Assembly (NCBI RefSeq): GCF_011326735.1
Contig: NZ_JAANCN010000005.1
Coordinates: 1-64,000, forward strand
DNA length: 64,000 bases
Origin: Phycicoccus endophyticus
Lineage (GTDB): Bacteria > Actinomycetota > Actinomycetes > Actinomycetales > Dermatophilaceae
Reading direction: 5' to 3'
Shown: in pieces, positions 2,468 to 52,013 of the stretch
How positions within the stretch are numbered: position 1 is the first letter of the stretch
Layout of the letters: every line of letters starts with the position of its first letter
The notes under the pieces: model-generated
The model's input: the letters and a program-made list of their open reading frames with translations, nothing else
Told to the model about the DNA's origin: nothing
Databases searched by the model: none
Program-made: the position numbers and the translations under genes

Positions 2468-2483
2468 ATACCCCCTAGGGTAT
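2468..2483. promoter_or_regulatory. CstR/CsoR-type operator upstream of cstB-like gene 1
   Basis: ATACCCCCTAGGGTAT, with inverted ATACCC/GGGTAT arms around a 4-bp centre, lies 47 bp before the ATG at 2531. It is one of a family of near-identical sites in this window. Assignment to the CstR-like repressor at 13.5 kb is inferred from co-occurrence. Confidence 0.75.
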
Positions 2484-2530
2484 TTGCAGAGACCGCAGCC
2501 GGACCGTCCGGCCCCATCCTGGAGGACCCG

Positions 2531-3907
2531 ATGATCTTCACCCAGTACTACCTCGACTGCCTCTCCCAGGCCGCCTACCTCGTCGGCGACGAGACGACCG
2601 GCCAGGCGGTGGTCGTCGACCCGCGCCGCGACGTCGCCGAGTACGTCGAGGACGCCCGCGCCCGCGGGCTGACCATCGTCGGCGTCGTCAACACCCACTT
2701 CCACGCCGACTTCGTCTCCGGCCACCTCGAGCTGGCCCGGGAGACCGGCGCCTGGATCGGCTACGGCGAGGCCGCCCAGGCCGACTTCGAGGTCCGCTCC
2801 CTGGCCGACGGCGAGCGGATCTCGCTCGGCGACGTGACCCTCGAGATCATGGCGACCCCGGGGCACACCCCGGAGTCGATCTCCGTGCTCGTCTACGAGC
2901 ACGCCGACGACGAGGTCGCCTACGGCGTGCTCACCGGCGACGCCCTGTTCATCGGCGACGTCGGGCGGCCCGACCTGCTCGCCTCGATCGGCGTCACCGC
3001 CGAGGAGCTCGGCCGGATGCTCTACGACTCGGTGCAGCACCGGCTCATGGGCCTCGACGACGCGGTCCGCGTCTTCCCCGCCCACGGCGCGGGCTCGGCG
3101 TGCGGCAAGAACCTCTCGACGGAGAAGCAGTCGACGATCGGCGAGCAGCGCCGTCTCAACTACGCCTGCCAGCCGATGAGCGAGGAGGAGTTCCTCGCCG
3201 TCGTCACCGCCGGGCAGCCGAGCGCGCCGGAGTACTTCGTCTACAACGCCATCCTCAACCGGCGCGAGCGCGACGTGCGCGACCTCGACACCAGCGTCCC
3301 CGCGCTCGGCCCGGAGGACGTCGACGCCGCCATCGCCGCGGGAGCCGTGGTCCACGACGCCCGCGACCCGCAGGAGTTCGCGGCCGCCCATCTCGAGGGC
3401 GCGGTCAACGTCCCCGTCGACGGCCGGATGGCCGAGACGGTCGGGATGGTGTTCGCCCCCGAGCAGCGCATCGTCGTCATCGCACCGGAGGGCCAGGAGC
3501 AGGAGGTCGCGACCCGCTTCGCGCGGATCGGCTACGACCACGTCGTCGGCTACGTCGCCGACCTCGAGGGCTACCTCCTCACGCACGCCGACCACGTCCG
3601 CCGGGCCAGCCGGCTCACCGTCACCGAGGCGGCCGAGGCGGTGGCCCGGCCCGCCGTGCAGGTCGTCGACATCCGCAACGCGGGTGAGCTGGAGTCCGGC
3701 GGCATCCCGGGCGCCCGGCACATCGCGCTCGCCGAGCTGGCTCGCCGCAGCAGCGAGCTCGACCCGAGCCACCCGGTCCTGCTCTACTGCGCCGGTGGGT
3801 GGCGCAGCTCGGTCGGGGCCAGCGTGCTTCGCGCACAGGGCTTCTCGGACGTCTCCGACGTCATCGGCGGGTATGCGGCCTGGGACCAGGCACACGCCTC
3901 GGCCTGA
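2531..3907 (+). CDS. CstB-like persulfide dioxygenase with pseudo-rhodanese and rhodanese domains
   Basis: 458 residues in three domains. Residues 1-240 form a metallo-beta-lactamase fold with H56-F-H58-A-D60 and a later GHT; this is the mononuclear iron persulfide dioxygenase type. A middle rhodanese-like domain (about 265-360) lacks a catalytic Cys, because the loop reads VIAPEGQE. The C-terminal rhodanese has an active-site loop CAGGWRSS with C420. This order and length match S. aureus CstB, which oxidises low-molecular-weight persulfides and yields thiosulfate. A conserved GSACGK follows the last metal-ligand histidine region. ATG 2531 follows GGAGGACCCG. A palindromic operator lies upstream and a hairpin downstream. 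In this organism the thiol carrier would probably be mycothiol (inference). Confidence 0.88.
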   Translation: MIFTQYYLDCLSQAAYLVGDETTGQAVVVDPRRDVAEYVEDARARGLTIVGVVNTHFHADFVSGHLELARETGAWIGYGEAAQADFEVRSLADGERISLGDVTLEIMATPGHTPESISVLVYEHADDEVAYGVLTGDALFIGDVGRPDLLASIGVTAEELGRMLYDSVQHRLMGLDDAVRVFPAHGAGSACGKNLSTEKQSTIGEQRRLNYACQPMSEEEFLAVVTAGQPSAPEYFVYNAILNRRERDVRDLDTSVPALGPEDVDAAIAAGAVVHDARDPQEFAAAHLEGAVNVPVDGRMAETVGMVFAPEQRIVVIAPEGQEQEVATRFARIGYDHVVGYVADLEGYLLTHADHVRRASRLTVTEAAEAVARPAVQVVDIRNAGELESGGIPGARHIALAELARRSSELDPSHPVLLYCAGGWRSSVGASVLRAQGFSDVSDVIGGYAAWDQAHASA

Positions 3908-3920
3908 CCGCGCCGACGTG

Positions 3921-3954
3921 CGGCCCCGGCGGATCCCCCCTCCCGCCGGGGCCG
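3921..3954 (+). terminator. GC-rich hairpin terminator after cstB-like gene 1
   Basis: A 12-bp stem (CGGCCCCGGCGG pairing with CCGCCGGGGCCG) and a 10-nt loop start 13 bp after the stop codon. No strong T-run follows. The rest of the 226-bp gap to the convergent MgtC gene shows no gene. Confidence 0.65.
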
Positions 3955-4133
3955 TTCGCTGTCGAACCCGTCCTTGACGCGCGCGGCAGGCTGGAGTTGA
4001 CTTCGCTCACTCGCAACCCGCGTGCGCACGTGGGCCGAGCGCCCCGGACAGACGGCGGCGGAGTGGAGACCCCGGTCCTGCTCCGTCGCCGTCGTGGTCT
4101 CCGGGCCCGCCCGCGCCCCGGGGCCGCGGTCCC

Positions 4134-4853: not shown

Positions 4854-4860
4854 CCGTCCG

Positions 4861-6011: not shown

Positions 6012-6728
6012 TCACGCCGTGCCGGCGGCCGGCCCGGTCGACGCGACGAGCCGGCGGAGGTACTCCGCGTCGCCGAGCAGCTCCAGCCGACGCCACAGCA
6101 CGCTGCCGGGCACGGCCTGGCTGGCGTGGCAGCGCACCGCCGCCAGCTGGCGGGTCCGGTCGACCTCCACCGCGTGCAGGTTCTCGAGCGGGTGGCCCGC
6201 GAACCCCGCGCCGGTCTCCGCGCGCAGGGCGGCGGCCACCGCCTCGGGCAGCGCCCAGCCGACGACCGGCAGGCCCCGCTCCTCACCGGCGAGCATCGCC
6301 GCCCGCGAGGCCGCCTCGTGGTCGGGATGCCCGGTGACCCCGGCGAGCGGGTCGAAGACGAGCAGGCCCTCGGCCCGGGTCCGCCCGGCCTCCTGCGCGA
6401 CCTCCTCGGCCAGCCGGAGCCGATCGAGCGAGGCGAGCCCGCCGTCCGGGTGGTCGCGCAGCGCCGTGTGGCGGATGCCGAGGACCTCGGCGGCCGCGCG
6501 CAGCTCACCCTCACGGACCGCCGCGAGGCCACCGTCGGGCCCGCCGAGCGTCGAGGCCTCGCCGTGGGTCAGGCACAGCACCGAGACCTCCGCGCCGGAG
6601 CGGACGAACGCGTCGAGCAGCGCCCCGAGCCCGAAGGACTCGTCGTCGGGGTGCGCCACGACGGCCAGCACCCGGCGCCACGCGGGCAGGCCGTCGCCGC
6701 GCAGCGCCGGTACCGAGGCCCTGGTCAT
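6012..6728 (-). CDS. PIG-L family N-deacetylase
   Basis: 238 residues. The metal-binding motif H26-P-D-D-E is followed by GHPDHEAA around residue 130, the second zinc motif. The family includes MshB and Mca of mycothiol metabolism and other sugar N-acetyl deacetylases. The protein is shorter than MshB (about 300), so it is not assigned to that step. The gene starts 10 bp after the TDT-family transporter on the same strand. It is probably the third gene of a peroxiredoxin-transporter-deacetylase operon under a CstR-type operator. A link to thiol or thiol-conjugate chemistry is therefore likely but inferred. Confidence 0.78.
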   Translation of the reverse strand: MTRASVPALRGDGLPAWRRVLAVVAHPDDESFGLGALLDAFVRSGAEVSVLCLTHGEASTLGGPDGGLAAVREGELRAAAEVLGIRHTALRDHPDGGLASLDRLRLAEEVAQEAGRTRAEGLLVFDPLAGVTGHPDHEAASRAAMLAGEERGLPVVGWALPEAVAAALRAETGAGFAGHPLENLHAVEVDRTRQLAAVRCHASQAVPGSVLWRRLELLGDAEYLRRLVASTGPAAGTA

Positions 6729-6738
6729 CGCCGGCTCC

Positions 6739-7743
6739 TCACTCCGGCAGGCAGATCTGCCGGTGTGCGACCGCGCGCAGCGTCAGGCCGCCGACGACGA
6801 GCACGAGGAGCGTCGTGCCGCCGAGCAGCACCCACGCCACGACGTCGTACGTCGCCTGCGGCCGCGCCCCGGCCATCGCCACCGCCGCTGCCGAGGCCGC
6901 CCCGAGGGGGAAGGTGTAGGCCCAGTACGGCAGGGCGAAGGGCACCCGCCGCAGGCGGCCGGCCTGGGCGAGCAGGATCGCGACGAAGGCCATCGCCGCC
7001 GCGTAGAGGATGTGTGCCACCGGCCCACCGCTGGTCCCGGTCAGCGCCTGCCACGAGAGCATCGCCACCGCGGGCGGCGCCACGAAGATCGCGATCGTCG
7101 GCAGGAGCCTGCCCGGCAGCCCGGCGTCGTGGAGCAGGACGCGCTGCAGGAGCAGCGGCAGCAGCCCGACCCAGAAGACGACCCCCACCCCGAACGCGAA
7201 CCAGCCGAGCTCGAGCGAGCCCACCTCGCGGGCGGCCAGTGGCGTGACGACGTTGCCGACGACCGGGATGAACCACGCCGGCGTCACCGTCGTGTGCACG
7301 ATGTCGACCCGCCCGAACCAGGCGCTGATGACCGCGGTCGTCGCGACGAGGTGGCCGACGGCGCCGACCCACCACAGGGCCGACGCTAGCGCGGGGACCA
7401 CGTCCTGGCCGGCCGTGGCCAGGACGAGCAGCGAGATCGTCACCGTCGGGGCGAAGGTCATCCGGACCGGATGCCGCAGCTCGGCCACGGCGGCCCGAGG
7501 GAAGCGCGCCCACTTGACCGCGTAGGCGACGCCGATGACGACGAAGGCCGCGGCGGCCAGGGCGAGGAAGCCGAGCGCGGGCCACTCGGGGACCTCCCAG
7601 ACCCGGGAGGCGCGGCGCCACGCGAGCGCGACGCCCCTCAGGCCCATCACCGAGGAGAACAGGGTCACCGGCAGGTGCGCCAGGGACCGCTCCCCCACCG
7701 GCGCGAGCGACCCCTCGGCGCCGGTGGACGTCTCGGGGCTCAC
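6739..7743 (-). CDS. TDT/SLAC1-family integral membrane transporter
   Basis: 334 residues with about ten hydrophobic helices and few loops. The family pattern is that of TehA, SLAC1 and Mae1/SSU1 proteins (voltage-dependent anion channel / C4-dicarboxylate exporter fold). Examples are PVTLFSSVMGLRGVALAW at the N-terminus, WFIPVVGNVVTPLA in the middle and FALPYWAYTFPLGA near the end. GTG 7743 overlaps the peroxiredoxin stop (GTGA), which fixes the start. The fungal member SSU1 exports sulfite. The position inside a persulfide-oxidation regulon that makes sulfite suggests sulfite or a related anion as substrate (inference). Tellurite/TehA or dicarboxylate transport are alternatives. Confidence 0.8.
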   Translation of the reverse strand: MSPETSTGAEGSLAPVGERSLAHLPVTLFSSVMGLRGVALAWRRASRVWEVPEWPALGFLALAAAAFVVIGVAYAVKWARFPRAAVAELRHPVRMTFAPTVTISLLVLATAGQDVVPALASALWWVGAVGHLVATTAVISAWFGRVDIVHTTVTPAWFIPVVGNVVTPLAAREVGSLELGWFAFGVGVVFWVGLLPLLLQRVLLHDAGLPGRLLPTIAIFVAPPAVAMLSWQALTGTSGGPVAHILYAAAMAFVAILLAQAGRLRRVPFALPYWAYTFPLGAASAAAVAMAGARPQATYDVVAWVLLGGTTLLVLVVGGLTLRAVAHRQICLPE

Positions 7744-8465
7744 GCCCCGGTGCGGATCGCCGACTCGACGTCCTCCGCCGGCAGCTCCTTGGTGCAGAAG
7801 AACCAGTCGACGCACTCGACGCCCTCCTCCGCGCCGTCCATCCGGTCCTTGGCCGTCCCGCAGGAGCCCGCCGTGGGGACGATGACCCGCTCACCCGGTC
7901 GCCAGTCGGCCGGGGTGGCGACGTTGAAGGCGTCGGCGGTCTGCAGGCCCTTGACGACCCGCAGCAGCTCGTCGAAGTTGCGCCCGAGGCTGAGCGGGTA
8001 GTAGACGATCGTGCGGATGACGCCCTTGGGGTCGATGACGAACACCGCCCGGACGGCCTGCGTGGCGGCCTCGCCCGGCATGATCATCCCGTACTTCGTC
8101 GCGACCTCCATCGACACGTCGTCGATGAGCGGGAAGGTGACCTCGACGCCCTTCATGTCGCGGAAGACCATCTTGTCCTGGATGGTGCGCAGCCAGGCGA
8201 TGTGGCTGTAGAGGCCGTCGACCGACAGGCCGACGAGCGCGGTGTTGTACGCGGCGAACTCCTCCTGCATCGAGGCGAAGGTCATGAACTCCGTCGTGCA
8301 CACCGGGGTGAAGTCCGCCGGGTGGGAGAAGAGGATGACCCACCGGCCGGCGTAGTCGCCGGGGAAGCTGATCGGCCCCTGCGTGGTCTCGGCGGTGAAC
8401 TCCGGCGCCGGGTCGCCGATCCGCGGCATCGTCGTGACCGTCCTCTCCTCGAGGGTCTGGCTCAT
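7740..8465 (-). CDS. Peroxiredoxin (Prx6/1-Cys-like, long form)
   Basis: 241 residues. The AhpC-TSA core carries HPADFTPVCTTEF with peroxidatic C56. A C-terminal extension includes a Cys (AGSCGTAKDR) and the CVDWFFC motif; this fits long archaeal/bacterial Prx6-like enzymes with extra cysteines. It reduces peroxides and possibly persulfide-type oxidants with thiol donors. ATG 8465 is preferred over the in-frame GTG 8468, because GGAAGGAG sits 7 nt before the ATG. It is first in an operon with the TDT transporter (4-nt overlap) and the PIG-L gene. A near-perfect ATACCC/GGGTAC operator lies 59 bp upstream. A redox role within the sulfide response is inferred. Confidence 0.88.
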   Translation of the reverse strand: MSQTLEERTVTTMPRIGDPAPEFTAETTQGPISFPGDYAGRWVILFSHPADFTPVCTTEFMTFASMQEEFAAYNTALVGLSVDGLYSHIAWLRTIQDKMVFRDMKGVEVTFPLIDDVSMEVATKYGMIMPGEAATQAVRAVFVIDPKGVIRTIVYYPLSLGRNFDELLRVVKGLQTADAFNVATPADWRPGERVIVPTAGSCGTAKDRMDGAEEGVECVDWFFCTKELPAEDVESAIRTGA

Positions 8466-8523: not shown

Positions 8524-8539
8524 ATACCCCCGGGGGTAC
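8524..8539. promoter_or_regulatory. CstR-type operator upstream of peroxiredoxin operon
   Basis: ATACCCCCGGGGGTAC has one mismatch from the ATACCC-N4-GGGTAT consensus. It lies between the 3-prime end of the ion-channel-like gene and the start of the peroxiredoxin gene. Confidence 0.7.
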
Positions 8540-8543: not shown

Positions 8544-9866
8544 TCAAGGGTGGCACCGACAGTGCTCCGGGACCGGGCGTCGCACGTCGCCGTCGGCGTC
8601 GAGGACACCCACCCGGTGCCCCTCGGTCCACGCTGCCGCAGGGGTCCGGCCCCGCACCGAGGCGCAGACCCAGGCTGCCGTCATCACCCCGACATCGCTG
8701 ACCCGCCCGATCCGGAACAGCGAGGTCGTCTCGGTCACGGCCACTCCCTCGCCGGCCCGCAGCACCGTGCGCACCCCCGGCGCGAGCGCGAGCGCGTTGA
8801 TCGCGACGGCGATGTTGTCGAGGTCCTGGGAGCCCATCGCCGCGACCGCCCGGGCCCGTCGCACGCCGACCCGGGTGAGGACCGCACGAGCGCTGGCGTC
8901 GCCGACGACGACCGGCAGCCCGCTCTCGCGCGCCAGGGCGAGGGTGTCCGGTCGGGCGACCCGCTCGACGACGACGACGGGGACCCGCAGCTCGCGCAGC
9001 AGCTGGGCCACCCGCAGCCCGACCTGGCCCAGCCCGGCGACGACGACGTGGCTCCGGACGGGAACACGGCGCGGGCCGACGAGTGCCGCCGTCCGGGCAC
9101 CGACGATCCACTCCACGAGCCCGGCGACGAGGGCGCCGGTCACCGCGATCCCGACGAGCATGAGCACCCCCGAGACGACGAGGTACCAGCCCGGCGCGCC
9201 GTGGTCGACCGCCGCGGCCGGGCCGGTCGTAGCGACGAGCCGGGCCGTCGAGTAGAACGCCTCGAGCACCCCCTCGTGGAGCACGGACGCCGCGAGCGCC
9301 CACTCCATCGCCACCGTCGCGGCCAGGCCGCCGAGCCCCAGCAGGAGGATGCCCTCGCCACCGCCGTAGCGGTGCGGCACCCAGCGCGCGGCCCACCGGC
9401 CGAGCCGGCGCGCCCAGGCCTCCGGCTCGGGCCGAGGCCGCCGCAGCCGGGCACCGTCGGGAGAGTCGACGAGCTCGGCGAGCCCCTCGGGGGTGGGCAG
9501 GAGCGCCAGGGCCTCGGGCCGCACGCACGCCGCGACGACGGCCGGTGCCGCGACGTCCGCGGGCGAGGTCACCGTGCAGTGCGGGACGACCTGCGCGAGG
9601 TGCGTCCCGAGGGTGCGGTCGAAGATCGTCACGACGATCGGCACGCCGGGCTGCAGGTGCTCGGCCAGGAGGGCGAAGCGCAGGGCGAGCAGGTCGCCCC
9701 GGACGACGACGGCGACACCCTCGACGGGCTCGGTGAGGGCTGCGCGCAGGGCGGGCTCGTCGGGGTCGAGCAGGTGGACGACGTCGGTGCCGTCCTCGGT
9801 GAGCAGGGTGCAGACCAGCCGGGTGGCCTCGAGGTCGCCGACGAGGAGGACGCGGGGGCGGCTCAC
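8544..9866 (-). CDS. Ion-channel-like membrane protein with two TrkA-N (RCK-type) NAD-binding domains
   Basis: About 440 residues. The N-terminal TrkA-N-like domain (RPRVLLVGDLEATRLVCTLL) is followed by a two-helix pore module at about 175-255 and a second Rossmann domain, VVVAGLGQVGLRVAQLL. The layout resembles bacterial K+ channels with RCK gating domains or CASTOR/POLLUX-like proteins. The expected pore filter TVGYGD is absent; the equivalent loop reads VATTGPAAAVDHG, so K+ selectivity should not be assumed. GTG 9866 is preferred because GGAGG lies 5 nt before it; GTG 9872 would overlap the SD. It is divergent from the SQR-like gene, and a weak member of the operator family lies in the shared region. 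Confidence 0.72.
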   Translation of the reverse strand: MSRPRVLLVGDLEATRLVCTLLTEDGTDVVHLLDPDEPALRAALTEPVEGVAVVVRGDLLALRFALLAEHLQPGVPIVVTIFDRTLGTHLAQVVPHCTVTSPADVAAPAVVAACVRPEALALLPTPEGLAELVDSPDGARLRRPRPEPEAWARRLGRWAARWVPHRYGGGEGILLLGLGGLAATVAMEWALAASVLHEGVLEAFYSTARLVATTGPAAAVDHGAPGWYLVVSGVLMLVGIAVTGALVAGLVEWIVGARTAALVGPRRVPVRSHVVVAGLGQVGLRVAQLLRELRVPVVVVERVARPDTLALARESGLPVVVGDASARAVLTRVGVRRARAVAAMGSQDLDNIAVAINALALAPGVRTVLRAGEGVAVTETTSLFRIGRVSDVGVMTAAWVCASVRGRTPAAAWTEGHRVGVLDADGDVRRPVPEHCRCHP

Positions 9867-9958
9867 GGGCACCTCCGGGGCCGGCGGCAGGGTCCGGGTG
9901 CGGCGCCGGGTAGACCACCCGACCCGGCGCCGCGGGTCCGGCCGGACTCACCCAGTCT

Positions 9959-9974
9959 ATACCGGGTGGGGTAT
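9959..9974. promoter_or_regulatory. Imperfect CstR-type operator, SQR/ion-channel divergent region
   Basis: ATACCGGGTGGGGTAT keeps the outer ATACC and GGGTAT arms with one mismatch. It lies 45 bp before the second, better copy and could serve either divergent gene. Confidence 0.55.
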
Positions 9975-10003: not shown

Positions 10004-10019
10004 ATACCCGCCTGGGTAT
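10004..10019. promoter_or_regulatory. CstR-type operator upstream of SQR-like gene
   Basis: ATACCCGCCTGGGTAT has perfect 6-bp arms and lies 40 bp before the ATG at 10060. It is placed to overlap the promoter of the SQR operon. Confidence 0.75.
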
Positions 10020-10059: not shown

Positions 10060-11517
10060 ATGGCCGATGTCGTCGTCCTCGGCGCCGGCGTCGCGGGCCA
10101 CACGGCCGCGCTGCACCTGAGCCGGCTGCTCCCCAAGGGCCACACCGTCACGGTCGTGTCCCCCAACTCCCGCTGGAACTGGATCCCGAGCAACATCTGG
10201 GTCGGCGTGGGGCGGATGTCGCGCCAGGAGGTGGTCTTCCCCCTCGAGCCGGTCTACCGCCGCAAGGGCATCCGGTTCGTCCAGGCCAAGGCCGTCGCGG
10301 TGCGCCCCGAGGGCGACGCCGAGAGCGAGCGCGGCGCGGTCGACATCGTACACACCGGCCCGGGGCGCGAGGGCGAGGAGACGCGCATCCGCTACGACTA
10401 CCTCGTCAACGCCACCGGCCCCCAGCTGCGCTTCGGGATGACCGAGGGGCTCGGCCCGGACGGCGGGCACACGGTCTCGGTGTGCACGGCCGACCACGCG
10501 GTCGACGCGGCAGCGCACCTGCAGACGGTCATCGAGCGGATGCGCGCCGGCGAGCGTCAGACCCTCGTCGTCGGCATGGGCCACGGCACGTGCACGTGCG
10601 AGGGTGCGGCCTTCGAGTACGTCTTCAACGTCGACCACGAGCTGCGCGCCGCCGGTGTCCGCGACCTCGCCCGCCTCGTCTACCTGAGCAACGAGGCGAC
10701 GCTCGGCGACTTCGGCGTCGACGGGATGACGTTCACCGAGCGCGGCTTCCAGACCACCTCGCAGCTGTGGACGGCCAGCCTCTTCCGCGAGCGCGGCGTC
10801 GAGGCCGTCCTCGGCGCCCACGTCCACCGGGTCACCCCGGGCGTCGTGCACTACGAGACGCTCGACGGGCAGATGCACGAGCTCGCGTTCGACTTCGGGA
10901 TGCTCCTGCCCCCCTTCGGCGGCGTCCCGCTCGCGGCCTACGACCGGGACGGCGCGGACATCACCGACCGGCTCTTCGCGCCGAGCGGGTTCATGCGGGT
11001 CGACGCGGACTACACCCCCAAGCCCTACGAGCAGTGGCGCGGCGACGACTGGCCGCGCACCTACCTCGCACCCGGCTACGACAACGTCTTCGCCGTCGGG
11101 ATCGCCTTCGCCCCGCCGCACCAGATCTCTCGGCCGCGGACGAGCCCCAACGGCACCGTCATCACGCCGTCACCACCCCGGACGGGGATGCCCTCGGGGG
11201 TCATGGGCAAGACGGCCGCGCTGACCATCGTCGACCGGATCCGGCACGGGCGGGACGCGCCGGCGCACGAGGCCTCGATGGCGCGGATGGGCGCGGCGTG
11301 CGTGGCGTCGGCCGGGACCGGGCTGCGCACCGGGTCGGCGGCGGCGATGACGATGATGCCCGTCGTGCCGGACTACGCCCGCTACCCGACGGGGCGCGAC
11401 CTCGCCGACACCCGCGGTGAGCTGGGGCTGGCCGGCCACTGGGTCAAGCTCATGCTGCACCACCTGTTCCTCCACAAGGCCAAGGGCCGGCTCGGCTGGC
11501 ACCTCATCCCGGAGTGA
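10060..11517 (+). CDS. Sulfide:quinone oxidoreductase-type flavoprotein
   Basis: 485 residues. The FAD dinucleotide fold starts at residue 3 (VVVLGAGVAGHTAALHL), with NATGP near residue 125 closing the first Rossmann unit. The segment SPNSRWNWIPSNIWVGVG and the C-terminal LPPFGGVPL match SQR/NDH-2-like enzymes. Cysteines occur in GTCTCEGAAFEY and ACVASAG. SQRs bind the membrane by their C-terminus and oxidise H2S to polysulfide or thiol persulfide, passing electrons to menaquinone. The C-terminal helix HWVKLMLHHLFLHKAKG is amphipathic, fitting membrane attachment. Two operators and GAAGGAG precede the start. It is first in an operon with a 54-residue protein and a methyltransferase. The exact SQR type is not resolved. 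Confidence 0.85.
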   Translation: MADVVVLGAGVAGHTAALHLSRLLPKGHTVTVVSPNSRWNWIPSNIWVGVGRMSRQEVVFPLEPVYRRKGIRFVQAKAVAVRPEGDAESERGAVDIVHTGPGREGEETRIRYDYLVNATGPQLRFGMTEGLGPDGGHTVSVCTADHAVDAAAHLQTVIERMRAGERQTLVVGMGHGTCTCEGAAFEYVFNVDHELRAAGVRDLARLVYLSNEATLGDFGVDGMTFTERGFQTTSQLWTASLFRERGVEAVLGAHVHRVTPGVVHYETLDGQMHELAFDFGMLLPPFGGVPLAAYDRDGADITDRLFAPSGFMRVDADYTPKPYEQWRGDDWPRTYLAPGYDNVFAVGIAFAPPHQISRPRTSPNGTVITPSPPRTGMPSGVMGKTAALTIVDRIRHGRDAPAHEASMARMGAACVASAGTGLRTGSAAAMTMMPVVPDYARYPTGRDLADTRGELGLAGHWVKLMLHHLFLHKAKGRLGWHLIPE

Positions 11518-11522
11518 GAGCT

Positions 11523-11687: not shown

Positions 11688-11726
11688 GCGGTGGGCGCCG
11701 GTGACCCGGTGGCGCACACTGGGCCC

Positions 11727-12359
11727 GTGGGAACACGCCGATGGTGGGAGGAGCGCGCCCTCCCGCGGCTGACCCACCGCACGTGCCAGGGCACCGACGT
11801 CGACCGCTGGCGGCGCCCCATGTGCGCCGAGGCCCGCGGCGTCGTCCTCGACGTCGGGTTCGGCTCCGGGCCCAACCTCGAGCACTACCCCGCGGCGGTC
11901 ACCCGGGTCCTGGCCGCCGAGCCCTCGCAGCTCGCGTGGGAGCTCGCGGCCGGGCGCATCGCGGCCTTCGGCCGGCCGGTCGAGCGCACCGCACGGGACG
12001 CCGCCGACCTCACGGCCCTGCCGGACGGCTCGGTCGACACCGTGACGGCGGCGTGGGCGCTGTGCACCGTGCCCGACGTGGGTCGTGCCCTCGCGGAGGT
12101 GCGGCGGGTACTGCGGCCGGGGGGCTCGCTGCTCTTCGTGGAGCACTCCCGCGCCCCGGACCGGGGCACCGAACGCGCCCAGCGGTGGGTGCAGCCGCTC
12201 TGGGGTCGGGTGGCCGGCGGGTGCCACCTCGACCGCGACCTGCCGCTCGTCATCGAGCGGACCGGCTTCGAGGTCGAGCTGGACCGGGCGGCGTACATCG
12301 GTCCCGGGCCGGTGCGGGTGTGGGGCTGGTTCGTCCGGGGCGCCGCCCGCCCGACCTGA
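11727..12359 (+). CDS. Class I SAM-dependent methyltransferase
   Basis: 210 residues from GTG 11727. An earlier GTG at 11691, 3 bp after the upstream stop, would add 12 residues. Motif I is VLDVGFGSGPN, with the acidic motif II after VTRVLAAEP, then LPDGSVDTVTAAWALCTV and VLRPGGSLLFVEHSRAPD, the pattern of the methyltransferase 11/UbiE group. A CACACT hexamer 6 nt before GTG 11727 suggests an internal leaderless promoter in addition to read-through from the SQR operon. The substrate is unknown. Thiol or sulfide methylation is conceivable from context, since small-molecule methyltransferases of this group can methylate thiols, but nothing in the sequence proves it. Confidence 0.75.
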   Translation: MGTRRWWEERALPRLTHRTCQGTDVDRWRRPMCAEARGVVLDVGFGSGPNLEHYPAAVTRVLAAEPSQLAWELAAGRIAAFGRPVERTARDAADLTALPDGSVDTVTAAWALCTVPDVGRALAEVRRVLRPGGSLLFVEHSRAPDRGTERAQRWVQPLWGRVAGGCHLDRDLPLVIERTGFEVELDRAAYIGPGPVRVWGWFVRGAARPT

Positions 12360-12662: not shown

Positions 12663-12827
12663 TCAGCGACCGAAGATGCGGCCGAGGAAGCCACCCGAGC
12701 CCGAGCCACCCTCGTGGCCCTGGCAGCGGTCGGCGGTCGGCACACCGCGCATCACCTGGTCGACGTGCTGGCCACATCCGGCCCACGTCGTCTTGCCACA
12801 CTGACGGCAGGTCACGGCTCGGCACAT
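12663..12827 (-). CDS. 54-residue Cys/His-rich zinc-ribbon-like small protein
   Basis: Begins MCRAVTCRQCGKTTWAGCGQ. The cysteines C-x4-C-x2-C and C-x2-H (AGCGQH), plus a later Cys/His pair (RCQGH), make a probable zinc or iron site. The C-terminal part is Gly/Ser-rich and ends FLGRIFGR. AGGAGAG is 5-7 nt before ATG 12827. A perfect 16-bp palindromic operator (12872-12887) lies 45 bp upstream, so this small gene appears to have its own promoter in the sulfide regulon. Similar small proteins are common in actinobacteria, but I know of no assigned function. Metal or persulfide binding is a hypothesis. Confidence 0.75.
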   Translation of the reverse strand: MCRAVTCRQCGKTTWAGCGQHVDQVMRGVPTADRCQGHEGGSGSGGFLGRIFGR

Positions 12828-12887: not shown

Positions 12888-13511
12888 CTAGACGGCGACT
12901 CGGTGCAGGGCGACGACGGTGTCGAGCGCCGGCCGCTGCGAGCTCTCCACGGCTCGCTCGCGCAGCTCGGCCGAGACCACCTCGACCGGCAGGTCGCCAG
13001 CCGCCGCGACGACGTCGTCGGGGTCGTGGAGGACGGCGGGGTCCTGCGGCCCGCCCGTCCCGGCGTCGAGGTTGCGTGCCGCATGGCAGACGACGAGGAC
13101 GGTACCTCCGGGGACGGCCGCCTCCACGCCGCGCGCCAGGGCCGTGCGCCACGGCGCGTCGGGCAGCTGGAGGTAGGAGAAGACGACGAGGTCGTAGCCC
13201 GGGCCCTCGCCCGGCGGGGGTGCGGGCTCGAGGGCGTCGGCGACGAGCGCCCGGAAGCCACCGGCGCCCTCCCCGAGCCGCGACGCGGCGATCGCCCGGG
13301 CCCGCCGCACCGCGACGTCGGAGAAGTCGGTGCACGTGGCGTCCCAGCCCTGCTCGGCGAGCCAGAGCGCGTTGCGCCCCTCACCGCCGGCGATGTCGAG
13401 CGCGCGCCCGGGCGGCAGCGCTCCGGCCACCTCCTCGACGAAGACGTTCGGCCCCGTCGACCACACGAGGTCGACGCCGGCATAGCGCTCGTCCCAGGCC
13501 GCCGCGTCCAT
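12888..13511 (-). CDS. Class I SAM-dependent methyltransferase (TehB/thiol-methyltransferase-like)
   Basis: 207 residues, starting MDAAAWDERYAGVDLVWSTGPN. This N-terminus (WDERY ... WSTGPN) is typical of small methyltransferases in the TehB/thiopurine-type group. Motif I is ALDIAGGEGRNALWLAEQG, followed by CTDFSDVAV and YDLVVFSYLQLPD. ATG 13511 shares its A with the stop codon of the CstR-like gene (TGATG), so it is the last gene of a rhodanese-regulator-methyltransferase operon. Enzymes of this type act on small anions or thiols, so methylation of sulfide, thiols or a related toxic species is plausible; this is inference from operon and family. Confidence 0.78.
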   Translation of the reverse strand: MDAAAWDERYAGVDLVWSTGPNVFVEEVAGALPPGRALDIAGGEGRNALWLAEQGWDATCTDFSDVAVRRARAIAASRLGEGAGGFRALVADALEPAPPPGEGPGYDLVVFSYLQLPDAPWRTALARGVEAAVPGGTVLVVCHAARNLDAGTGGPQDPAVLHDPDDVVAAAGDLPVEVVSAELRERAVESSQRPALDTVVALHRVAV

Positions 13512-13771
13512 CACGCGAGGGAGAGGAAGAGCTTCTCCATCGACTCCACGTCCATCGACCCGGCGTCGGGGTCGGTGATGCACTGCCGCAGGCCGAGGGC
13601 GATGACGGCGAAGCCGGCGCGGTCGAGCGCCTTGGAGACCGCCGCGAGCTGGGTGACGATGTCCTGGCACTCCCGCCCCTCGTCGATCATCTTCAGGATG
13701 CCGCCGATCTGGCCCTGGGCACGCTTGAGCCGCTTGACGACGGCTTGCATCTCGGTGGGGTCGAGCTCCAT
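13511..13771 (-). CDS. CsoR/CstR-family transcriptional repressor, persulfide-sensor type
   Basis: 86 residues from ATG 13771, with AGGAGG 8 nt upstream. A GTG at 13855, also with an SD (AGGAG) and 13 bp after the rhodanese stop, would give a 114-residue form. This all-helical DUF156 family forms tetramers that bind GC-rich pseudopalindromes. The two sensing cysteines are present (C35 in GRECQDIV and C64 in LRQCI). The copper-ligand His of CsoR, four residues before the second Cys, is Gly60 here. CstR proteins likewise lack that His and sense persulfides by forming di- to tetrasulfide cross-links. The regulator sits between a rhodanese and a methyltransferase, among genes carrying the ATACCC/GGGTAT palindrome, and is the best candidate to bind it. 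Confidence 0.88.
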   Translation of the reverse strand: MELDPTEMQAVVKRLKRAQGQIGGILKMIDEGRECQDIVTQLAAVSKALDRAGFAVIALGLRQCITDPDAGSMDVESMEKLFLSLA

Positions 13772-13868
13772 CGTGGCGCCTCCTCGGATGTTCGCGGACA
13801 GGTGCTCGATGGTACCGGGGGCGGTACCCACGGTGGGACGGCTCGCTGTGCTCACGGCACGGCTCCTC

Positions 13869-14189
13869 TCAGGCGGCCTGCGGCCCGGTGACGACCGGGC
13901 GGCCGGCGGCGCTCCAGGCGGAGGTCCCGCCCTCGACGTTCTGCGCGTCGTAGCCGAGCCCGGTGAGCAGGTCGACGACGGCGCGGCTGCGGTTGCCGCT
14001 CTGGCAGATGACGTGGACGGGACGGTCCTTCGGCAGGGAGCCGAGGACGGTGGTCACGCGCGACAGCGGCGCGAGCACGGCCCCGGGGACGTGCCCCTGG
14101 ACGTACTCCGCCGGCTCCCGGACGTCGAGGACGAAGGCGCCGTCGGCGTGGCGGGCGGCGAGCGTGGCGATGTCGATGCTGCGGGTCAT
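13869..14189 (-). CDS. Single-domain rhodanese sulfurtransferase
   Basis: 106 residues, one rhodanese domain. FVLDVREPAEYVQGHVPGAVLAP is the N-terminal signature, and the active-site loop ICQSGNRS carries C62 as the sulfur carrier. Such proteins take sulfane sulfur from persulfide or thiosulfate to thiols, sulfite or cyanide. ATG 14189 lies just downstream of a long 13-bp-arm palindrome containing the operator consensus. It is first gene of the rhodanese-cstR-methyltransferase operon, so the repressor probably controls its own operon. Confidence 0.9.
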   Translation of the reverse strand: MTRSIDIATLAARHADGAFVLDVREPAEYVQGHVPGAVLAPLSRVTTVLGSLPKDRPVHVICQSGNRSRAVVDLLTGLGYDAQNVEGGTSAWSAAGRPVVTGPQAA

Positions 14190-14194: not shown

Positions 14195-14222
14195 GGAATC
14201 ATACCCCAGGGGGTATGATTCC
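14195..14222. promoter_or_regulatory. Long palindromic CstR-type operator before rhodanese-cstR operon
   Basis: Two perfect 13-bp arms, GGAATCATACCCC and its complement, are separated by 2 bp; the core ATACCC-N4-GGGTAT is at 14201-14216. It is the most symmetric site in the window and lies 6 bp before the rhodanese start. It could also form a hairpin in the read-through transcript of the thioredoxin gene. Confidence 0.8.
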
Positions 14223-14238: not shown

Positions 14239-14610
14239 TCAGCTCGAGCTCGAGGACTGCGCGGCGACCTGGGCCCGGACCTCGTCCATGTCCAGGCCCT
14301 TGATGCCGTCGACGACCTGCTCGAGCGCGGCCGGAGGCAGGGCGCCCGCCTGGCGGAAGACGAGGATGCCGTCGCGGAAGCCCATGAGCGTCGGGATCGA
14401 GGTGATCTGCGCGGCGCCGGCCAGGGACTGCTCGGCCTCGGTGTCGACCTTGCCGAAGACGACGTCCTCGTGCTGCTCGCTGGACTTCTCGTAGGTCGGC
14501 GCGAACTGGCGGCACGGGCCGCACCACGAGGCCCACCAGTCGACGAGCACGATGCCGCCGTCGGTGACGGTCTTCTCGAAGGTGTCGGCCGTGAGGTTCA
14601 CGGTGGCCAT
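14239..14610 (-). CDS. Thioredoxin
   Basis: 123 residues. A classic thioredoxin fold with the active site WASWCGPCRQF (C30, C33), cis-Pro region SIPTLMGFRDG and family-typical C-terminal helix. ATG 14610 has AAGGAG 6 nt upstream; the longer frame to 14715 lacks support. A Ser-rich tail (five Ser) closes the protein. It is divergent from the second CstB-like gene with a shared operator at 14667-14682. It probably reduces disulfides or persulfides formed on the rhodaneses, peroxiredoxin or regulator (inference). It may be read together with the rhodanese operon downstream, although that has its own operator. Confidence 0.93.
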   Translation of the reverse strand: MATVNLTADTFEKTVTDGGIVLVDWWASWCGPCRQFAPTYEKSSEQHEDVVFGKVDTEAEQSLAGAAQITSIPTLMGFRDGILVFRQAGALPPAALEQVVDGIKGLDMDEVRAQVAAQSSSSS

Positions 14611-14666
14611 GTCAGCTCCTTGGGAATGTTCGGGGAGTGCTGCGTGCTTCCACGGGTGGCAACATG

Positions 14667-14682
14667 ATACCCCTATGGGTAT
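14667..14682. promoter_or_regulatory. CstR-type operator shared by thioredoxin and cstB-like gene 2
   Basis: ATACCCCTATGGGTAT lies 57 bp before the thioredoxin ATG and 39 bp before the ATG of the divergent metallo-beta-lactamase/rhodanese gene, so one site can control both. Confidence 0.78.
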
Positions 14683-14720
14683 ATTCCACTCACCACCCGA
14701 CCAGGAGGAGAACACCCGCG

Positions 14721-16064
14721 ATGGTCGAGATCATCCCCGTCGAGACCCCGTCCCTCGGTGACCGCAGCTACCTCGCGCACGACGGCGAGGTCGCCCTCGT
14801 CGTCGACCCCCAGCGCGACTACGACCGGGTCACCGCGCTCGCCGCGCGCGAGGGCGTGCGGATCACGCACGTCGTCGAGACGCACATCCACAACGACTAC
14901 GTGACCGGCGGCCTCGCCCTCGCCCAGGAGGTCGGTGCCGCCTACCACGTCGGCGCCGAGGACCCGGTGGCCTACGAGCGGGTCCCCACCCGGGACGGGG
15001 ACGTCATCGAGGTCTCCCCGGCGATGACCCTGACCGCCATCGCCACCCCCGGGCACACCTTCACCCATCTCTCGTACGCGCTGTCCTCGCACGGGCAGGA
15101 CCTCGCGGTCTTCACCGGCGGGTCGCTGCTCTTCGGCTCGACCGGCCGCCCGGACCTGCTCGGGCCCGAGCACACCCACTCCCTCGTGCACGCCCAGTAC
15201 GCGTCGGCCCACCGGCTCGCCGAGCGGCTCGGGGACCACACGCAGGTCTACCCGACGCACGGCTTCGGCAGCTTCTGCTCGGCGACCCAGTCCGAGGCGA
15301 CCGCCTCCACGATCGGCCAGGAGCGGCGCAGCAACCCTGCCCTGACCCAGGACGAGGAGGAGTGGGTCGCCGACCTGCTCGCCGGCCTGGACGCCTACCC
15401 CGCCTACTACGCCCACATGGGGCCGGCCAACCTCGCCGGCCCGCACGCCCCGGACCTCGAGCCCCCGGCGCCGGCGGACGCGGCCGAGATCCGGCGTCGG
15501 GTCGAGGCCGGCGAGTGGGTCGTCGACCTGCGCAACCGCAAGACCTTCGCCGCCGGGTTCGTCCCGGGGACCTTCAACGTCGGCATCGACGGCCAGTTCT
15601 CCACCTACGTGGGCTGGCTCATGCCCTGGGGGAGCCGGATCACCCTCCTCGGGGAGACCCCGGAGCAGGTCGCCGAGGCCCAGCGCGAGCTGGCCCGGAT
15701 CGGCGTCGACGAGATCGCGGGCGGCGCCTCGGGCCACCCCCGGGAGTGGACCGACGGAGAGCTCGCCACGCTCCCCCGAGCCACCTTCGCCGACCTCGCC
15801 GACGTGCTCCACCACCGCCGGGTCACGGTGCTCGACGTCCGGCGCGAGCCGGAGTACGCCGACGGACACGTCGCCGGAGCGCTGAACATCCCCATCCACG
15901 AGGTCCTCGACCGCCTCGACGAGGTGCCCGAGGGTGAGGTGTGGGTCCACTGCGTCAGCGGCTACCGGGCCTCGGTCGTCGCGAGCATCCTCGACGCCGC
16001 CGGGCGTCGGGCGGTGGCGGTCGACGACGACTTCACCACCGCCGAGGAGGTCGGCCTGGCCTGA
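14721..16064 (+). CDS. CstB-like persulfide dioxygenase with pseudo-rhodanese and rhodanese domains (second copy)
   Basis: 447 residues, same three-domain plan as the gene at 2531 but clearly diverged. The MBL motif is ETHIHNDYVTGG (H55, H57, D59) and GHT follows at about 115. The middle rhodanese-like domain has no Cys (ITLLGETPEQ). The C-terminal rhodanese has HCVSGYRAS with C411. Conserved GSFCSATQSE corresponds to GSACGKNLST of copy 1. ATG 14721 is 11 nt after AGGAGG. The two copies may act on different persulfides or under different sulfide loads. It is not a recent duplication, as the proteins differ along their length. Confidence 0.87.
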   Translation: MVEIIPVETPSLGDRSYLAHDGEVALVVDPQRDYDRVTALAAREGVRITHVVETHIHNDYVTGGLALAQEVGAAYHVGAEDPVAYERVPTRDGDVIEVSPAMTLTAIATPGHTFTHLSYALSSHGQDLAVFTGGSLLFGSTGRPDLLGPEHTHSLVHAQYASAHRLAERLGDHTQVYPTHGFGSFCSATQSEATASTIGQERRSNPALTQDEEEWVADLLAGLDAYPAYYAHMGPANLAGPHAPDLEPPAPADAAEIRRRVEAGEWVVDLRNRKTFAAGFVPGTFNVGIDGQFSTYVGWLMPWGSRITLLGETPEQVAEAQRELARIGVDEIAGGASGHPREWTDGELATLPRATFADLADVLHHRRVTVLDVRREPEYADGHVAGALNIPIHEVLDRLDEVPEGEVWVHCVSGYRASVVASILDAAGRRAVAVDDDFTTAEEVGLA

Positions 16065-16502: not shown

Positions 16503-16518
16503 CTACCGGGCAGGGTAT
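16503..16518. promoter_or_regulatory. Degenerate CstR-type operator before NifX-like gene
   Basis: CTACCGGGCAGGGTAT keeps the right arm intact. The left arm has two mismatches, at the outermost and innermost bases. It resembles the imperfect site at 9959. Functionality is uncertain. Confidence 0.35.
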
Positions 16519-50258: not shown

Positions 50259-50310
50259 GCTGTCCGTTCTGAAGTCGATGCTGCGGTTCGGGCCGGTGGC
50301 CCGGGCCGGC

Positions 50311-50346
50311 GGTGGGGGCGGGCCGGTGGCCCGGCCCGCCCCCACC
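50311..50346 (-). terminator. Intra-operon hairpin between binding protein and permease genes
   Basis: A 16-bp perfect stem (GGTGGGGGCGGGCCGG and its complement) with loop TGGC lies just after the binding-protein stop codon. It probably attenuates or protects mRNA so that the binding protein is made in excess over the permeases. Confidence 0.75.
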
Positions 50347-50352
50347 GGGTGC

Positions 50353-51669
50353 TCAGCCCTGGTTGTTCTGCGCCGCGGTGGCGAGGTCGGACACGAGCCC
50401 GTCGACGTCACGCTGGGAGTAGAACTTGCTGACGGCCGAGGAGATGTCGGTCAGCCAGGCCTGGTTGACCGCCGCCCCGTGGGCGATCGAGGACACGATG
50501 GTGTTGTCCTGGAAGGCCGACATCGCCGACTGCTGGTACTTCGGGAAGTCCTCCGGGCCGATGTCCGTGCGTGCCGGGATCGAGCCCTTGGCGAGGTTGA
50601 ACGCCTTCTGGCCCTCGGCGGAGCCGACGAGCATGAGCCAGTCCTTGGCGCCGTCCGGGTTGTCCGTGCCCTTGGGCAGGGTGAAGGAGTCGGCGAGGAA
50701 GTCGAAGACCCCGTCGGTGCCCGGGACCGGGAAGTACGTGAACCCGGTGCCGTCCTCGGCGCCCTTGTCGGCGAACTCGGCGACCGCCCAGTCACCCATG
50801 ACGTTGTAGGCGGCCGAGCCGTCGATGACCATGTCGGTCGCGGCCGGCCAGTCGTCACCGTCGGACGCGGTGTTGGCGTAGGACAGCAGGGTCTTGAAGT
50901 CGTTCGCGGCCTGCTTGACCTCGTCGGAGTCCCACGCGGTCGAGCCGTCGAAGAGGCCCGAGTAGCCCTCGGCCCCGAGGTCGGAGAGCAGGACGGTCTC
51001 GAGCAGCTGGACCTGGGTCCAGGTGCCACCGACCGACAGCGGGGTCTTGACGCCGGAGGCCTTGACCTTCTTGATGTCGGCGATCCACGCCGACATGTCC
51101 GCGGGCGTGCCGTTGACCCCGGCCTTCTTGAGCACCGTGGGGTTGGCCCACACGACGTTCGCCCGGTGGATGTTCGAGGGCACCGAGTAGATGTTGCCCT
51201 TGACGGTCAGCCGGTCCAGCAGGTCCTGCGGGAAGACGTCCGAGCCGCCGAGGGCCTCGATGACGTCGTTGACCGGCTCGATCTGGCCCTTGCTGATGTA
51301 GTCGGTCAGCTCGGCGCCGGCGTGGCCCTGGAAGGAGCTCGGGGGCTGGTTGTTCTGCAGGTCGGAGGCGAGCTTGGCCTTCGCGTTCGTGCCGGCGCCG
51401 CCGGCGACCGCGAGGTTGACGAACTCGTCGTTCGGGTAGTCCTTCGCGAAGAGCTTCTCGAGCGCGTCGAGGCCCTTCTTCTCCGAGCCGGCCGCCCACC
51501 ACGTGAACACGCCGACCTTGCCGCCGGCGCCCCCCTCCTTGGGGGTGTACGCGCCGCTGGCGGCGCTCGTCTGCGCGTCGCCCGAGGTCGCGTCGCCCGT
51601 CGAGCACGCCGCCAGCCCCAGGGCTGCGACCGCCACCGCGGCGACCGCGGAGGTCTTCCTCACACCCAT
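50353..51669 (-). CDS. Sugar ABC transporter substrate-binding lipoprotein
   Basis: 438 residues. The lipoprotein signal peptide MGVRKTSAVAAVAVAALGLAAC ends in the lipobox LAAC with C22. The mature protein has the family-1 solute-binding fold: GKVGVFTWWAAGSEKKGLDALEKLF, PPSSFQGHAGAELTDYI, IYSVPSNIHRANVVWANP and MVIDGSAAYNVMGDWAVAEF. It resembles glucose/mannose-type binding proteins in reading, but the sugar cannot be stated. AAGGAGAA lies 5 nt before ATG 51669. It is first gene of the operon with two permeases and possibly lutABC. Confidence 0.92.
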   Translation of the reverse strand: MGVRKTSAVAAVAVAALGLAACSTGDATSGDAQTSAASGAYTPKEGGAGGKVGVFTWWAAGSEKKGLDALEKLFAKDYPNDEFVNLAVAGGAGTNAKAKLASDLQNNQPPSSFQGHAGAELTDYISKGQIEPVNDVIEALGGSDVFPQDLLDRLTVKGNIYSVPSNIHRANVVWANPTVLKKAGVNGTPADMSAWIADIKKVKASGVKTPLSVGGTWTQVQLLETVLLSDLGAEGYSGLFDGSTAWDSDEVKQAANDFKTLLSYANTASDGDDWPAATDMVIDGSAAYNVMGDWAVAEFADKGAEDGTGFTYFPVPGTDGVFDFLADSFTLPKGTDNPDGAKDWLMLVGSAEGQKAFNLAKGSIPARTDIGPEDFPKYQQSAMSAFQDNTIVSSIAHGAAVNQAWLTDISSAVSKFYSQRDVDGLVSDLATAAQNNQG

Positions 51670-52013
51670 CACTTCTCCTTCTCGACCGAAGTCATCATCC
51701 ACGGCCCGTGGACCCGGGCCGTCCCCGGGAGGCCGCCGCTCCGCGGCCCCGGCGGCGCGGGGGCGGAGCCCAGCGCTGGACCGAGACCGAGAGGTGGGAG
51801 CACCGCCGGTCGCGTCGGCCAGGAGCGGGCTGCGGACAGGCCGCAGGCCCGCGCATGGCACAACGTCGCGCCGCATCGTAACTCCGCACCGGGGGCCCGC
51901 GAAGGCCGGTCCGACAACGATGTCATAACGGATACCCCCCTATGGTATAGATGGATACCCCCTGGTCGTATGGCCGGAGGACGTCCGACCCACCGACCCC
52001 ACGGAGGAACCTC
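51670..52013. other. Divergent intergenic region of 344 bp
   Basis: No gene is seen. It holds the promoter of the ABC operon (a TACGAT hexamer on the minus strand at 51880-51875 is a weak -10 candidate, leaving a leader of about 200 nt). The tandem CstR-like sites of the permease gene are at 51932-51971. Confidence 0.7.
51932..51971. promoter_or_regulatory. Tandem CstR-type operators upstream of the permease
   Basis: ATACCCCCCTATGGTAT (51932-51948) and ATACCCCCTGGTCGTAT (51955-51971) each keep the ATACCC left arm and an imperfect right arm. Starts are 23 bp apart, about two helical turns. They lie 43-82 bp before GTG 52014. Confidence 0.6.

What the first reader, a model, noticed from the sequence alone, without database searches (positions are those of the whole stretch)
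2468..51971. A nine-site ATACCC-N4-GGGTAT operator family defines a sulfide-response regulon
Palindromes at 2468, 8524, 9959, 10004, 12872, 14201 (core of the 14195-14222 palindrome) and 14667 precede cstB-like gene 1, the peroxiredoxin operon, the SQR operon, a zinc-ribbon gene, the rhodanese-cstR operon and the thioredoxin/cstB2 pair. Weaker copies occur at 16503 and, in tandem, at 51932-51971. They are seen almost only in front of sulfur or redox genes. CsoR/CstR proteins bind GC-rich pseudopalindromes of this general form, and one such gene is in the set. A single window with so many sites allows a clean consensus and adds genes not known to belong to CstR regulons.
Basis: partly seen in the sequence, partly recalled or inferred. 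Interest (0 to 1): 0.85.

Follow-up and report, generated by a model that had tools for sequence, protein, structure and literature searches.

The report
Sulfide-response switchboard with unnamed small protein
An actinobacterium carries about a dozen copies of one short DNA switch, most of them in front of its sulfide-handling genes and very probably worked by one persulfide-sensing repressor, and two of the switched genes make a tiny, unnamed cysteine-rich protein that keeps the same company in many other actinobacteria.

Summary
Seven of the nine claimed sites are real: 7 with at most 1 mismatch to ATACCC-N4-GGGTAT, against 0.005 per shuffled window. Two claims fail: 16503 (2 mismatches) is at chance level, and the 51932-51971 pair has the 17-bp (N5) spacing found before copper csoR-copA. 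The 16-bp form matches the published S. coelicolor ScCsoR site (ATACCn6GGTAT). The window's regulator (13511-13771) is CstR-type: two Cys, no metal-binding His. Operators sort by spacer: 18 of 18 palindromes at copper-type loci are N5; 21 of 23 at CstR-type loci are N4. Across 296 genomes the motif follows CstR: 35 of 45 with strong CstR scores, 28 of 34 middle, 19 of 217 others. The genome adds sites before trxB, a second SQR, TauE and a second copy of the small protein. The newest part is that 54-aa CxxC protein (12663-12827, minus strand), without significant Pfam, NCBIfam or PHROGs match: 51 of 80 relatives have an exact operator within 250 bp, and in 16 of 22 phylum-sample genomes with both genes it lies within 3.2 kb of cstR. 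Binding, induction and its function are inferred.

The parts
2468..2483 (.). CstR-type operator (exact, N4), 47 bp before the MBL-fold/rhodanese gene
2531..3907 (+). cstB-like protein: metallo-beta-lactamase fold plus rhodanese domains (persulfide dioxygenase/sulfurtransferase type)
   Evidence: NCBIfam matches, all below their cut-offs; reading of the translation
8524..8539 (.). CstR-type operator, 1 mismatch, before the peroxiredoxin operon
7740..8465 (-). peroxiredoxin with AhpC-TSA and 1-cysPrx_C domains
6739..7767 (-). SLAC1-family anion channel (candidate sulfite/anion exporter, my inference), downstream of the peroxiredoxin; a homologue stands next to an N4 site in G002/L012 (P. sonneratiae)
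   Evidence: (L261)
6012..6728 (-). PIG-L-family deacetylase, same operon direction; a homologue has an N4 site in a relative
   Evidence: (L265)
9959..9974 (.). CstR-type operator, 1 mismatch, SQR/TrkA_N intergenic region
10004..10019 (.). CstR-type operator, exact, 40 bp before SQR
10060..11517 (+). sulfide:quinone oxidoreductase-like flavoprotein (SQR1)
   Evidence: Pyr_redox_2; SQR_III match below its cut-off
11691..12359 (+). SAM methyltransferase downstream of SQR1; a homologue has an N4 site in a relative
   Evidence: (L265)
8544..9872 (-). TrkA_N protein divergent from SQR1 across the 9959/10004 sites; same arrangement in L261
12872..12887 (.). CstR-type operator, exact, before the 54-aa CxxC protein
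12663..12827 (-). 54-aa CxxC protein, unnamed family; second copy at C4:1418-1576 (L003), also behind an exact operator
14201..14216 (.). CstR-type operator, exact, core of a 28-bp inverted repeat 14195-14222, 11 bp before rhodanese
13869..14189 (-). single-domain rhodanese
13511..13771 (-). CstR-type CsoR-family repressor (fingerprint C-G-C, no His)
12888..13502 (-). SAM methyltransferase downstream of cstR
14667..14682 (.). CstR-type operator, exact, divergent thioredoxin/cstB2 promoter region
14239..14604 (-). thioredoxin
14721..16064 (+). second cstB-like protein (rhodanese domain; Lactamase_B just below its cut-off)
51932..51948 (.). 17-bp (N5) palindrome, 1 mismatch: copper-CsoR-type site, not part of the CstR set
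51955..51971 (.). second N5 palindrome, 2 mismatches, tandem with the former, before an ArsP_1 permease (52014-53177)

Best explanation
The 16-bp palindrome ATACC-N6-GGTAT is the operator of the CstR-type repressor encoded at 13511-13771. In this genome that one repressor very probably sits on about ten promoter regions. When sulfane sulfur accumulates, its two cysteines are persulfidated or cross-linked, it leaves the DNA, and the cell makes sulfide oxidase (two SQR-like proteins), cstB-like persulfide dioxygenase/sulfurtransferases, rhodanese, sulfite/anion exporters (TauE, SLAC1), thiol reductants (thioredoxin, peroxiredoxin, TrxB) and a 54-aa CxxC protein. The paralogous copper regulator CsoR is kept apart by one extra base in the spacer (17-bp operators). 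Shown by sequence: sites, spacing, gene content, co-occurrence and linkage. Inferred from S. coelicolor and S. aureus: repression and release by persulfide. The 54-aa protein is proposed to be a metal-thiolate (zinc or Fe-S) protein whose extra invariant cysteines take up or relay sulfane sulfur; that step is inference only.
For: Motif excess and controls. Regulator class: only two CsoR-family proteins in the genome, one C-H-C beside a copA-like gene, one C-G-C in the sulfur cluster; best PDB sequence matches 7mq1-7mq3, E 1e-11, deposited under the name csoR, but 7MQ2 is called CstR in PMC9774590 (passages). Published operator ATACCn6GGTAT for S. coelicolor ScCsoR, released by polysulfide, Cys37 persulfidated (PMC7533328, passages); published 17-bp CsoR site with N5 spacer, TAC-X9-GTA, in S. 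lividans (PMC3902906, passages). Spacer sorting: 36 C-H-C loci, 18 of 18 palindromes N5; 67 C-x-C-class loci, 21 of 23 N4; in the genus 8 of 11 fetched N5 loci stand before csoR-copA. Motif follows CstR over 296 genomes. Small protein: 53 of 80 with at most 1 mismatch (51 exact) within 250 bp, against at most 2 of 80 for each of 29 other permuted half-sites; present in 22 of 45 strong-CstR genomes against 14 of 251 others; within 3.2 kb of cstR in 16 of those 22; coding (mismatch rates by codon position 0.142, 0.123, 0.437).
Against: No binding or expression data. trxB keeps an exact operator in only 2 of 11 genus genomes measured, own genome included (one more has 2 mismatches; one of the 12 was not located by my script). 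Two N5 palindromes lie at CstR-class loci and three Agromyces loci have 15-bp forms, so the spacer rule is not absolute. 29 of 80 small-protein loci lack an exact site within 250 bp, though 14 of these have one elsewhere in the fetched stretch. 10 of 45 strong-CstR genomes have no exact motif and 19 of 217 low-score or CstR-less ones do; 11 of those 217 hold the small protein. Genomes share ancestry and the Fisher tests do not correct for it. Structure model of the small protein is modest (pLDDT 74, pTM 0.44) and matches nothing in PDB.
Confidence: 0.86

Rival explanations
1. The sites are operators of the copper repressor CsoR (C14:254835), and the sulfur genes answer to copper or thiol stress through it.
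For: Same protein family and near-identical half-sites; ScCsoR's site was noted as highly similar to CsoR and RicR sites of other species (PMC7533328).
Against: CsoR's own operator and all 18 palindromes found at 36 copper-type loci are 17 bp, none 16 bp. G013 (Bowdeniella nasicola), whose only PF02583 match is of the C-G-C type, still has three exact 16-bp sites, one of them before the small protein.
Confidence: 0.06
2. Some sites, such as the tRNA-Gln(CTG) leader, trxB and PPDK sites, are accidents or other elements that happen to spell the palindrome.
For: The tRNA leader is conserved as CCCC next to tRNA GGGGTAT with varying spacing; 15 of the 30 family loci fetched keep the exact ATACCCC placement. 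The trxB site is exact in 2 of 11 genus genomes measured.
Against: Chance gives about 0.25 sites with at most 1 mismatch per genome (scaled), so the trxB, SQR2 and TauE sites are unlikely all to be accidents; a sqr2 homologue in L247 and a trxB in L280 have exact sites.
Confidence: 0.3
3. The small CxxC protein is a zinc store or zinc chaperone that makes good zinc loss under sulfide, not a sulfur-handling protein.
For: C7, C10, C18, H21, C35 and C37/H38 look like metal ligands; sulfide binds zinc (general knowledge).
Against: Its neighbours where identified are sulfane-sulfur and thiol-redox genes (my query set held no zinc transporters, so their absence was not tested there); weak sub-threshold matches are also to Fe-S ferredoxin-type models.
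Confidence: 0.3

Closest known systems
ScCsoR circuit of Streptomyces coelicolor (PMC7533328, passages seen)
   Same: Same 16-bp operator form ATACCn6GGTAT; two-Cys CsoR-like repressor; controls persulfide dioxygenase, sulfite transporter, rhodanese and itself
   Different: There four genes in one circuit; here about ten promoter regions in several places, adding SQR, thioredoxin, peroxiredoxin, TrxB and the small CxxC protein
CstR/cst operon of Staphylococcus aureus (PMC5480029, passages seen)
   Same: Per- and polysulfide-sensing dithiol repressor of cstA, cstB and sqr
   Different: Its authors conclude that CstR probably directly regulates a single operon; here the set is scattered and wider
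CstR of Enterococcus faecalis with CoAPR (PMC9405070, passages seen)
   Same: CoA-disulfide-reductase-like FAD enzymes also lie next to N4 sites in relatives of this genome
   Different: None was seen behind this genome's own exact sites
CsoR of Streptomyces lividans (PMC3902906, passages seen)
   Same: CsoR family, TAC/GTA dyads flanking G-tracts
   Different: Copper sensor; TAC-X9-GTA (17 bp), one base longer than the sites here
TTHA1953 of Thermus thermophilus (PMC10318464, passages seen)
   Same: Cys-reactive CsoR-family repressor of a scattered sulfur-oxidation regulon; spacing of repeats matters
   Different: Operator TACNNTACNNNNGTANNGTA; controls Sox genes

Membership tests
CstR (persulfide-sensing CsoR family) | CsoR-family fold (PF02583) | tested here: met
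   80.8 bits against a cut-off of 22.8
CstR (persulfide-sensing CsoR family) | Two conserved Cys and no metal-ligand His | tested here: met
   C-G-C fingerprint
CstR (persulfide-sensing CsoR family) | Linked to rhodanese, PDO/sulfurtransferase, SQR or sulfite exporter genes | tested here: met
   window genes
CstR (persulfide-sensing CsoR family) | Operator before its own operon | tested here: met
   14201 before rhodanese-cstR
CstR (persulfide-sensing CsoR family) | Released from DNA by persulfide or polysulfide, not by copper | not testable with these tools
   needs purified protein
ScCsoR-type operator ATACCn6GGTAT | 16-bp palindrome, TAC-N8-GTA | tested here: met
   2468, 9959, 10004, 12872, 14201, 14667 match in full; 8524 ends GGTAC
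ScCsoR-type operator ATACCn6GGTAT | The 51932-51971 pair has this spacing | tested here: not met
   both are 17-bp N5 forms
Known zinc-ribbon, rubredoxin or Fe-S families (for the 54-aa protein) | Significant profile or fold match | tested here: not met
   72 members scanned: best E 0.015 in Pfam, 0.0062 in NCBIfam, 0.06 in PHROGs, each in few members; best PDB fold E 5.3 from a modest model

The most novel reading that the evidence does not exclude
The 54-aa CxxC protein is a new, widespread actinobacterial component of persulfide defence: a mini metal-thiolate protein that accepts, buffers or relays sulfane sulfur, held under CstR by an operator that in several distant lineages overlaps its start codon. 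The one-base difference in operator spacer is the device that keeps the copper (CsoR) and persulfide (CstR) circuits apart in the same cell.
Probability: 0.4. Interest if true: 0.78.

Novelty: new variant of a known kind. Interest (0 to 1): 0.58.

Why it matters
The CstR circuits whose papers I saw cover one operon or four genes (PMC5480029, PMC7533328); this one reaches about ten promoter regions and ties sulfide oxidation to the thioredoxin system. It also gives an unnamed protein family a testable assignment by three signs (operator, neighbourhood, co-occurrence). The spacer rule turns a vague 'GC-rich pseudopalindrome' into a predictor of which CsoR-family paralogue owns a site, which can be applied to unstudied genomes and tested with two oligonucleotides.

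Tried and rejected
tRNA-Gln(CTG) as a CstR target: the exact palindrome recurs in several genomes of the genus, but in the wider family the leader keeps CCCC while ATA and spacing drift (15 of the 30 loci fetched, of 57 genomes with a match, keep the exact placement), so a pre-tRNA leader element is likelier.

Selenocysteine in the small protein: two matches with an inner TGA (L345, L347) were only ordinary early stops.

The 16503 site and the 51.9-kb pair were rejected as CstR sites (see observation check). Structure search of the small protein gave no usable fold. Its sequence was not found in print: of three letter-string terms the one paper listed was a plant DNA-motif paper, a chance hit; searches listed nothing that I recognised as about it. 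No statement that spacer length separates CsoR from CstR sites turned up in the listings of searches or in the passages read; most subscription papers are not held, and the 2014 S. aureus CstR paper was looked up and is not; the 2011 one was not looked up. So it may be in print there. My first count of operators before the small protein in the phylum sample missed sites that overlap the start codon; one search replaces it.
Full report
THE SITES. The 16-bp palindrome ATACCC-N4-GGGTAT is present at 2468, 10004, 12872, 14201 and 14667 (exact) and at 8524 and 9959 (1 mismatch). Shuffles of the window give 0.005 such sites. In the whole genome (3.18 Mb, 21 contigs) there are 9 exact copies and 13 with at most 1 mismatch. 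In 12 genomes of the genus there are 67 exact copies and none of the reversed control. In 34 of 49 small-protein-bearing genomes (a subset that I chose, mostly operator-positive) 33 have the motif, again with no reversed control.

TWO SPACINGS, TWO REGULATORS. The genome has two CsoR-family proteins. One, at C14:254835, has the copper fingerprint C-H-C, lies next to a P-type ATPase gene of copA type (my reading of the translation) and has ATACCC-N5-GGGTAT, 17 bp, in front. The other, at 13511-13771 in the window, is C-G-C. In 49 genomes there were 131 PF02583 matches; I held 110 of them (18 high-scoring and 3 weak ones were left out). Within 520 bp of the locus centre, 36 C-H-C loci held 18 palindromes, all N5; 67 loci of the C-x-C class (one of them T-E-S) held 21 N4 and 2 N5; 7 C-H-H loci held 2 N5. 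The scan covered spacers of 1 to 8 in that notation, with half-sites ATACC/GGTAT. In the genus the exact N5 form occurs 15 times in 9 of 12 genomes. Of 11 N5 loci fetched, 8 stand before csoR-copA; the other three had no hit to my query genes, two of them sharing one uncharacterised membrane protein. Published sites agree: S. coelicolor ScCsoR ATACCn6GGTAT (PMC7533328) and S. lividans CsoR with N5 spacer (PMC3902906). Three Agromyces loci use a 15-bp form before the small protein.

MOTIF FOLLOWS REGULATOR. In 296 genomes drawn across the phylum I scored CstR-type proteins with a profile of 20 C-x-C sequences and the exact motif. Strong CstR (E at most 1e-22): 35 of 45 genomes have the motif. 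Middle scores (about 3e-18 to 1e-22): 28 of 34. Rest: 19 of 217. Fisher test of strong against rest, middle left out: p = 6e-21. The thresholds are mine, set after seeing the scores, and the middle group was not classed by fingerprint. The reversed control occurs in 1, 2 and 12 genomes of the three groups.

GENES BEHIND THE SITES. In the window: cstB-like gene (2531-3907); peroxiredoxin with SLAC1 and PIG-L genes behind it (6012-8465); SQR1 with a methyltransferase (10060-12359) and a divergent TrkA_N protein; the 54-aa protein (12663-12827); rhodanese-cstR-methyltransferase (12888-14189); thioredoxin and the second cstB-like gene (14239-16064). Outside: the second small-protein copy (C4:1355), TauE (C16:13859), trxB followed by a thioredoxin (C17:174483), SQR2 (C16:164133, 1 mismatch; SQR by my reading and similarity, Pfam gives only Pyr_redox_2) and a PPDK-like gene (C19:53140, 1 mismatch, by reading, uncertain). 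Conservation differs: trxB keeps an exact site in 2 of 11 genus genomes measured. Of 156 unique exact N4 sites in the loci examined, 153 had one of my query genes or a tRNA beside them: small protein 64, thioredoxin 29, CoA-disulfide-reductase-like 26, cstB-like 25, rhodanese 12, cstR 12, tRNA-Gln 9 and rarer ones. That tally leans to the small protein because 80 loci were fetched for it, and 16 of the query genes were picked from these same sites, so it is a description and not a test.

THE SMALL PROTEIN. 54 aa, MCRxVxCxxCGKTTWAGCGxHVDxVM...RCxGH...GFFxRLFGR. Invariant in 72 aligned rows: M1, C2, C7, C10, K12, W15, A16, G17, C18, G19, H21, V22, D23, V25, C35. It is coding: over codons 1-38 of 81 sequences the mismatch rates at codon positions 1-3 are 0.142, 0.123 and 0.437, with 39,957 synonymous against 21,888 other codon differences. 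Of 80 loci (the 80 best of 509 in a capped scan, so biased to close relatives) 51 have exact ATACC-N6-GGTAT within 250 bp, the site beginning 46-85 bp before the start; 2 more have 1 mismatch; with at most 1 mismatch none of the 29 other permuted half-sites exceeded 2 of 80. Of the 29 without an exact near site, 14 have one elsewhere in the fetched stretch, several ahead of a cstR, cstB, trx or rhodanese gene. 48 of 49 genomes scanned have a CstR-type regulator; the exception, a Brachybacterium MAG (G043), has no operator at its locus. In the less biased phylum sample the protein is in 36 of 296 genomes: 22 of 45 with strong CstR and 14 of 251 without (p = 5e-12); it lies within 3.2 kb of cstR in 16 of those 22. 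Of 30 phylum loci read, 10 of 19 from strong-CstR genomes and 0 of 11 others have an operator within 300 bp, one of these the 15-bp form; in four the site overlaps the start codon. Of the six phylum loci not read, the coordinates put an exact site over the start codon in G196 (a middle-score genome), G217 and G249 and about 220 bp upstream in G094; G280 and G324 have no exact site in the genome. On plasmids 66 records hold the protein and none of the 20 listed matches lies under an annotated gene, though that gene table is incomplete. On Curtobacterium pC1a it stands in the order metal-sensitive regulator, small gene, rhodanese, DsrE, TauE, with trxA and an MBL gene near.

HOW IT MOST LIKELY WORKS. 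Reduced CstR holds the operators; persulfide or polysulfide modifies its cysteines and frees them (reported for S. coelicolor and S. aureus in the papers cited, inferred here). SQR makes persulfide from sulfide, the cstB-like enzymes and rhodanese oxidise or move it, TauE and perhaps SLAC1 export sulfite, and thioredoxin, TrxB and peroxiredoxin reduce persulfides (thioredoxin and peroxiredoxin are credited with this in PMC9774590 and PMC9426444, passages). The small protein has seven invariant or near-invariant possible ligands (C2, C7, C10, C18, H21, C35, C37/H38), more than one zinc site needs, so a redox or sulfur-accepting role for C2 or C18 is my guess.

NOVELTY. The operator form, the sensor type and the core targets are known. 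The breadth of the set, the spacer sorting across many genomes and the small protein as a CstR-linked family were not found in the papers I could search.

Noticed in passing
L005 5727-5801 (own genome C16:97793) and L289-L318: The leader of tRNA-Gln(CTG) carries CCCC(A/T) or a near form directly before the tRNA's TGGGGTAT in most of the family loci read, so leader and 5' acceptor strand are complementary, while the rest of the leader drifts. Possibly an alternative pre-tRNA fold.
   Followed up: partly
L007 near 6110 and L008 near 5610: SQR2 and PPDK-like upstream regions share a second palindrome ACTAC-N5-GTAGT beside the CstR-like site.
   Followed up: no
L207, L210, L238, L202, L241 next to N4 sites: Short membrane proteins with a GC(A/T/S)(P/S)CA or GCPVC motif recur beside N4 operators; possible further unnamed families of the regulon.
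   Followed up: partly
window 12404-12590: A unit of about 52 bp (gggaacaccggcgcaggggtggacgtacctgacgtgacctattggtcgattc) repeated about three times between a methyltransferase gene and the small-protein gene.
   Followed up: no
window 51932-51971: Tandem 17-bp CsoR-type palindromes before an ArsP_1 permease suggest a copper-CsoR target outside copA.
   Followed up: partly
L250 1526: A 16-bp operator stands about 130 bp before a cydA-like gene (bd oxidase, by reading) in Tetrasphaera australiensis, which would fit a sulfide-resistant terminal oxidase under CstR.
   Followed up: no
G195, G376, G407, G160, G184: Five genomes of two families of the phylum hold 12 to 33 exact copies of the motif, more than any other in the sample; very large regulons or a repeat element.
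   Followed up: no
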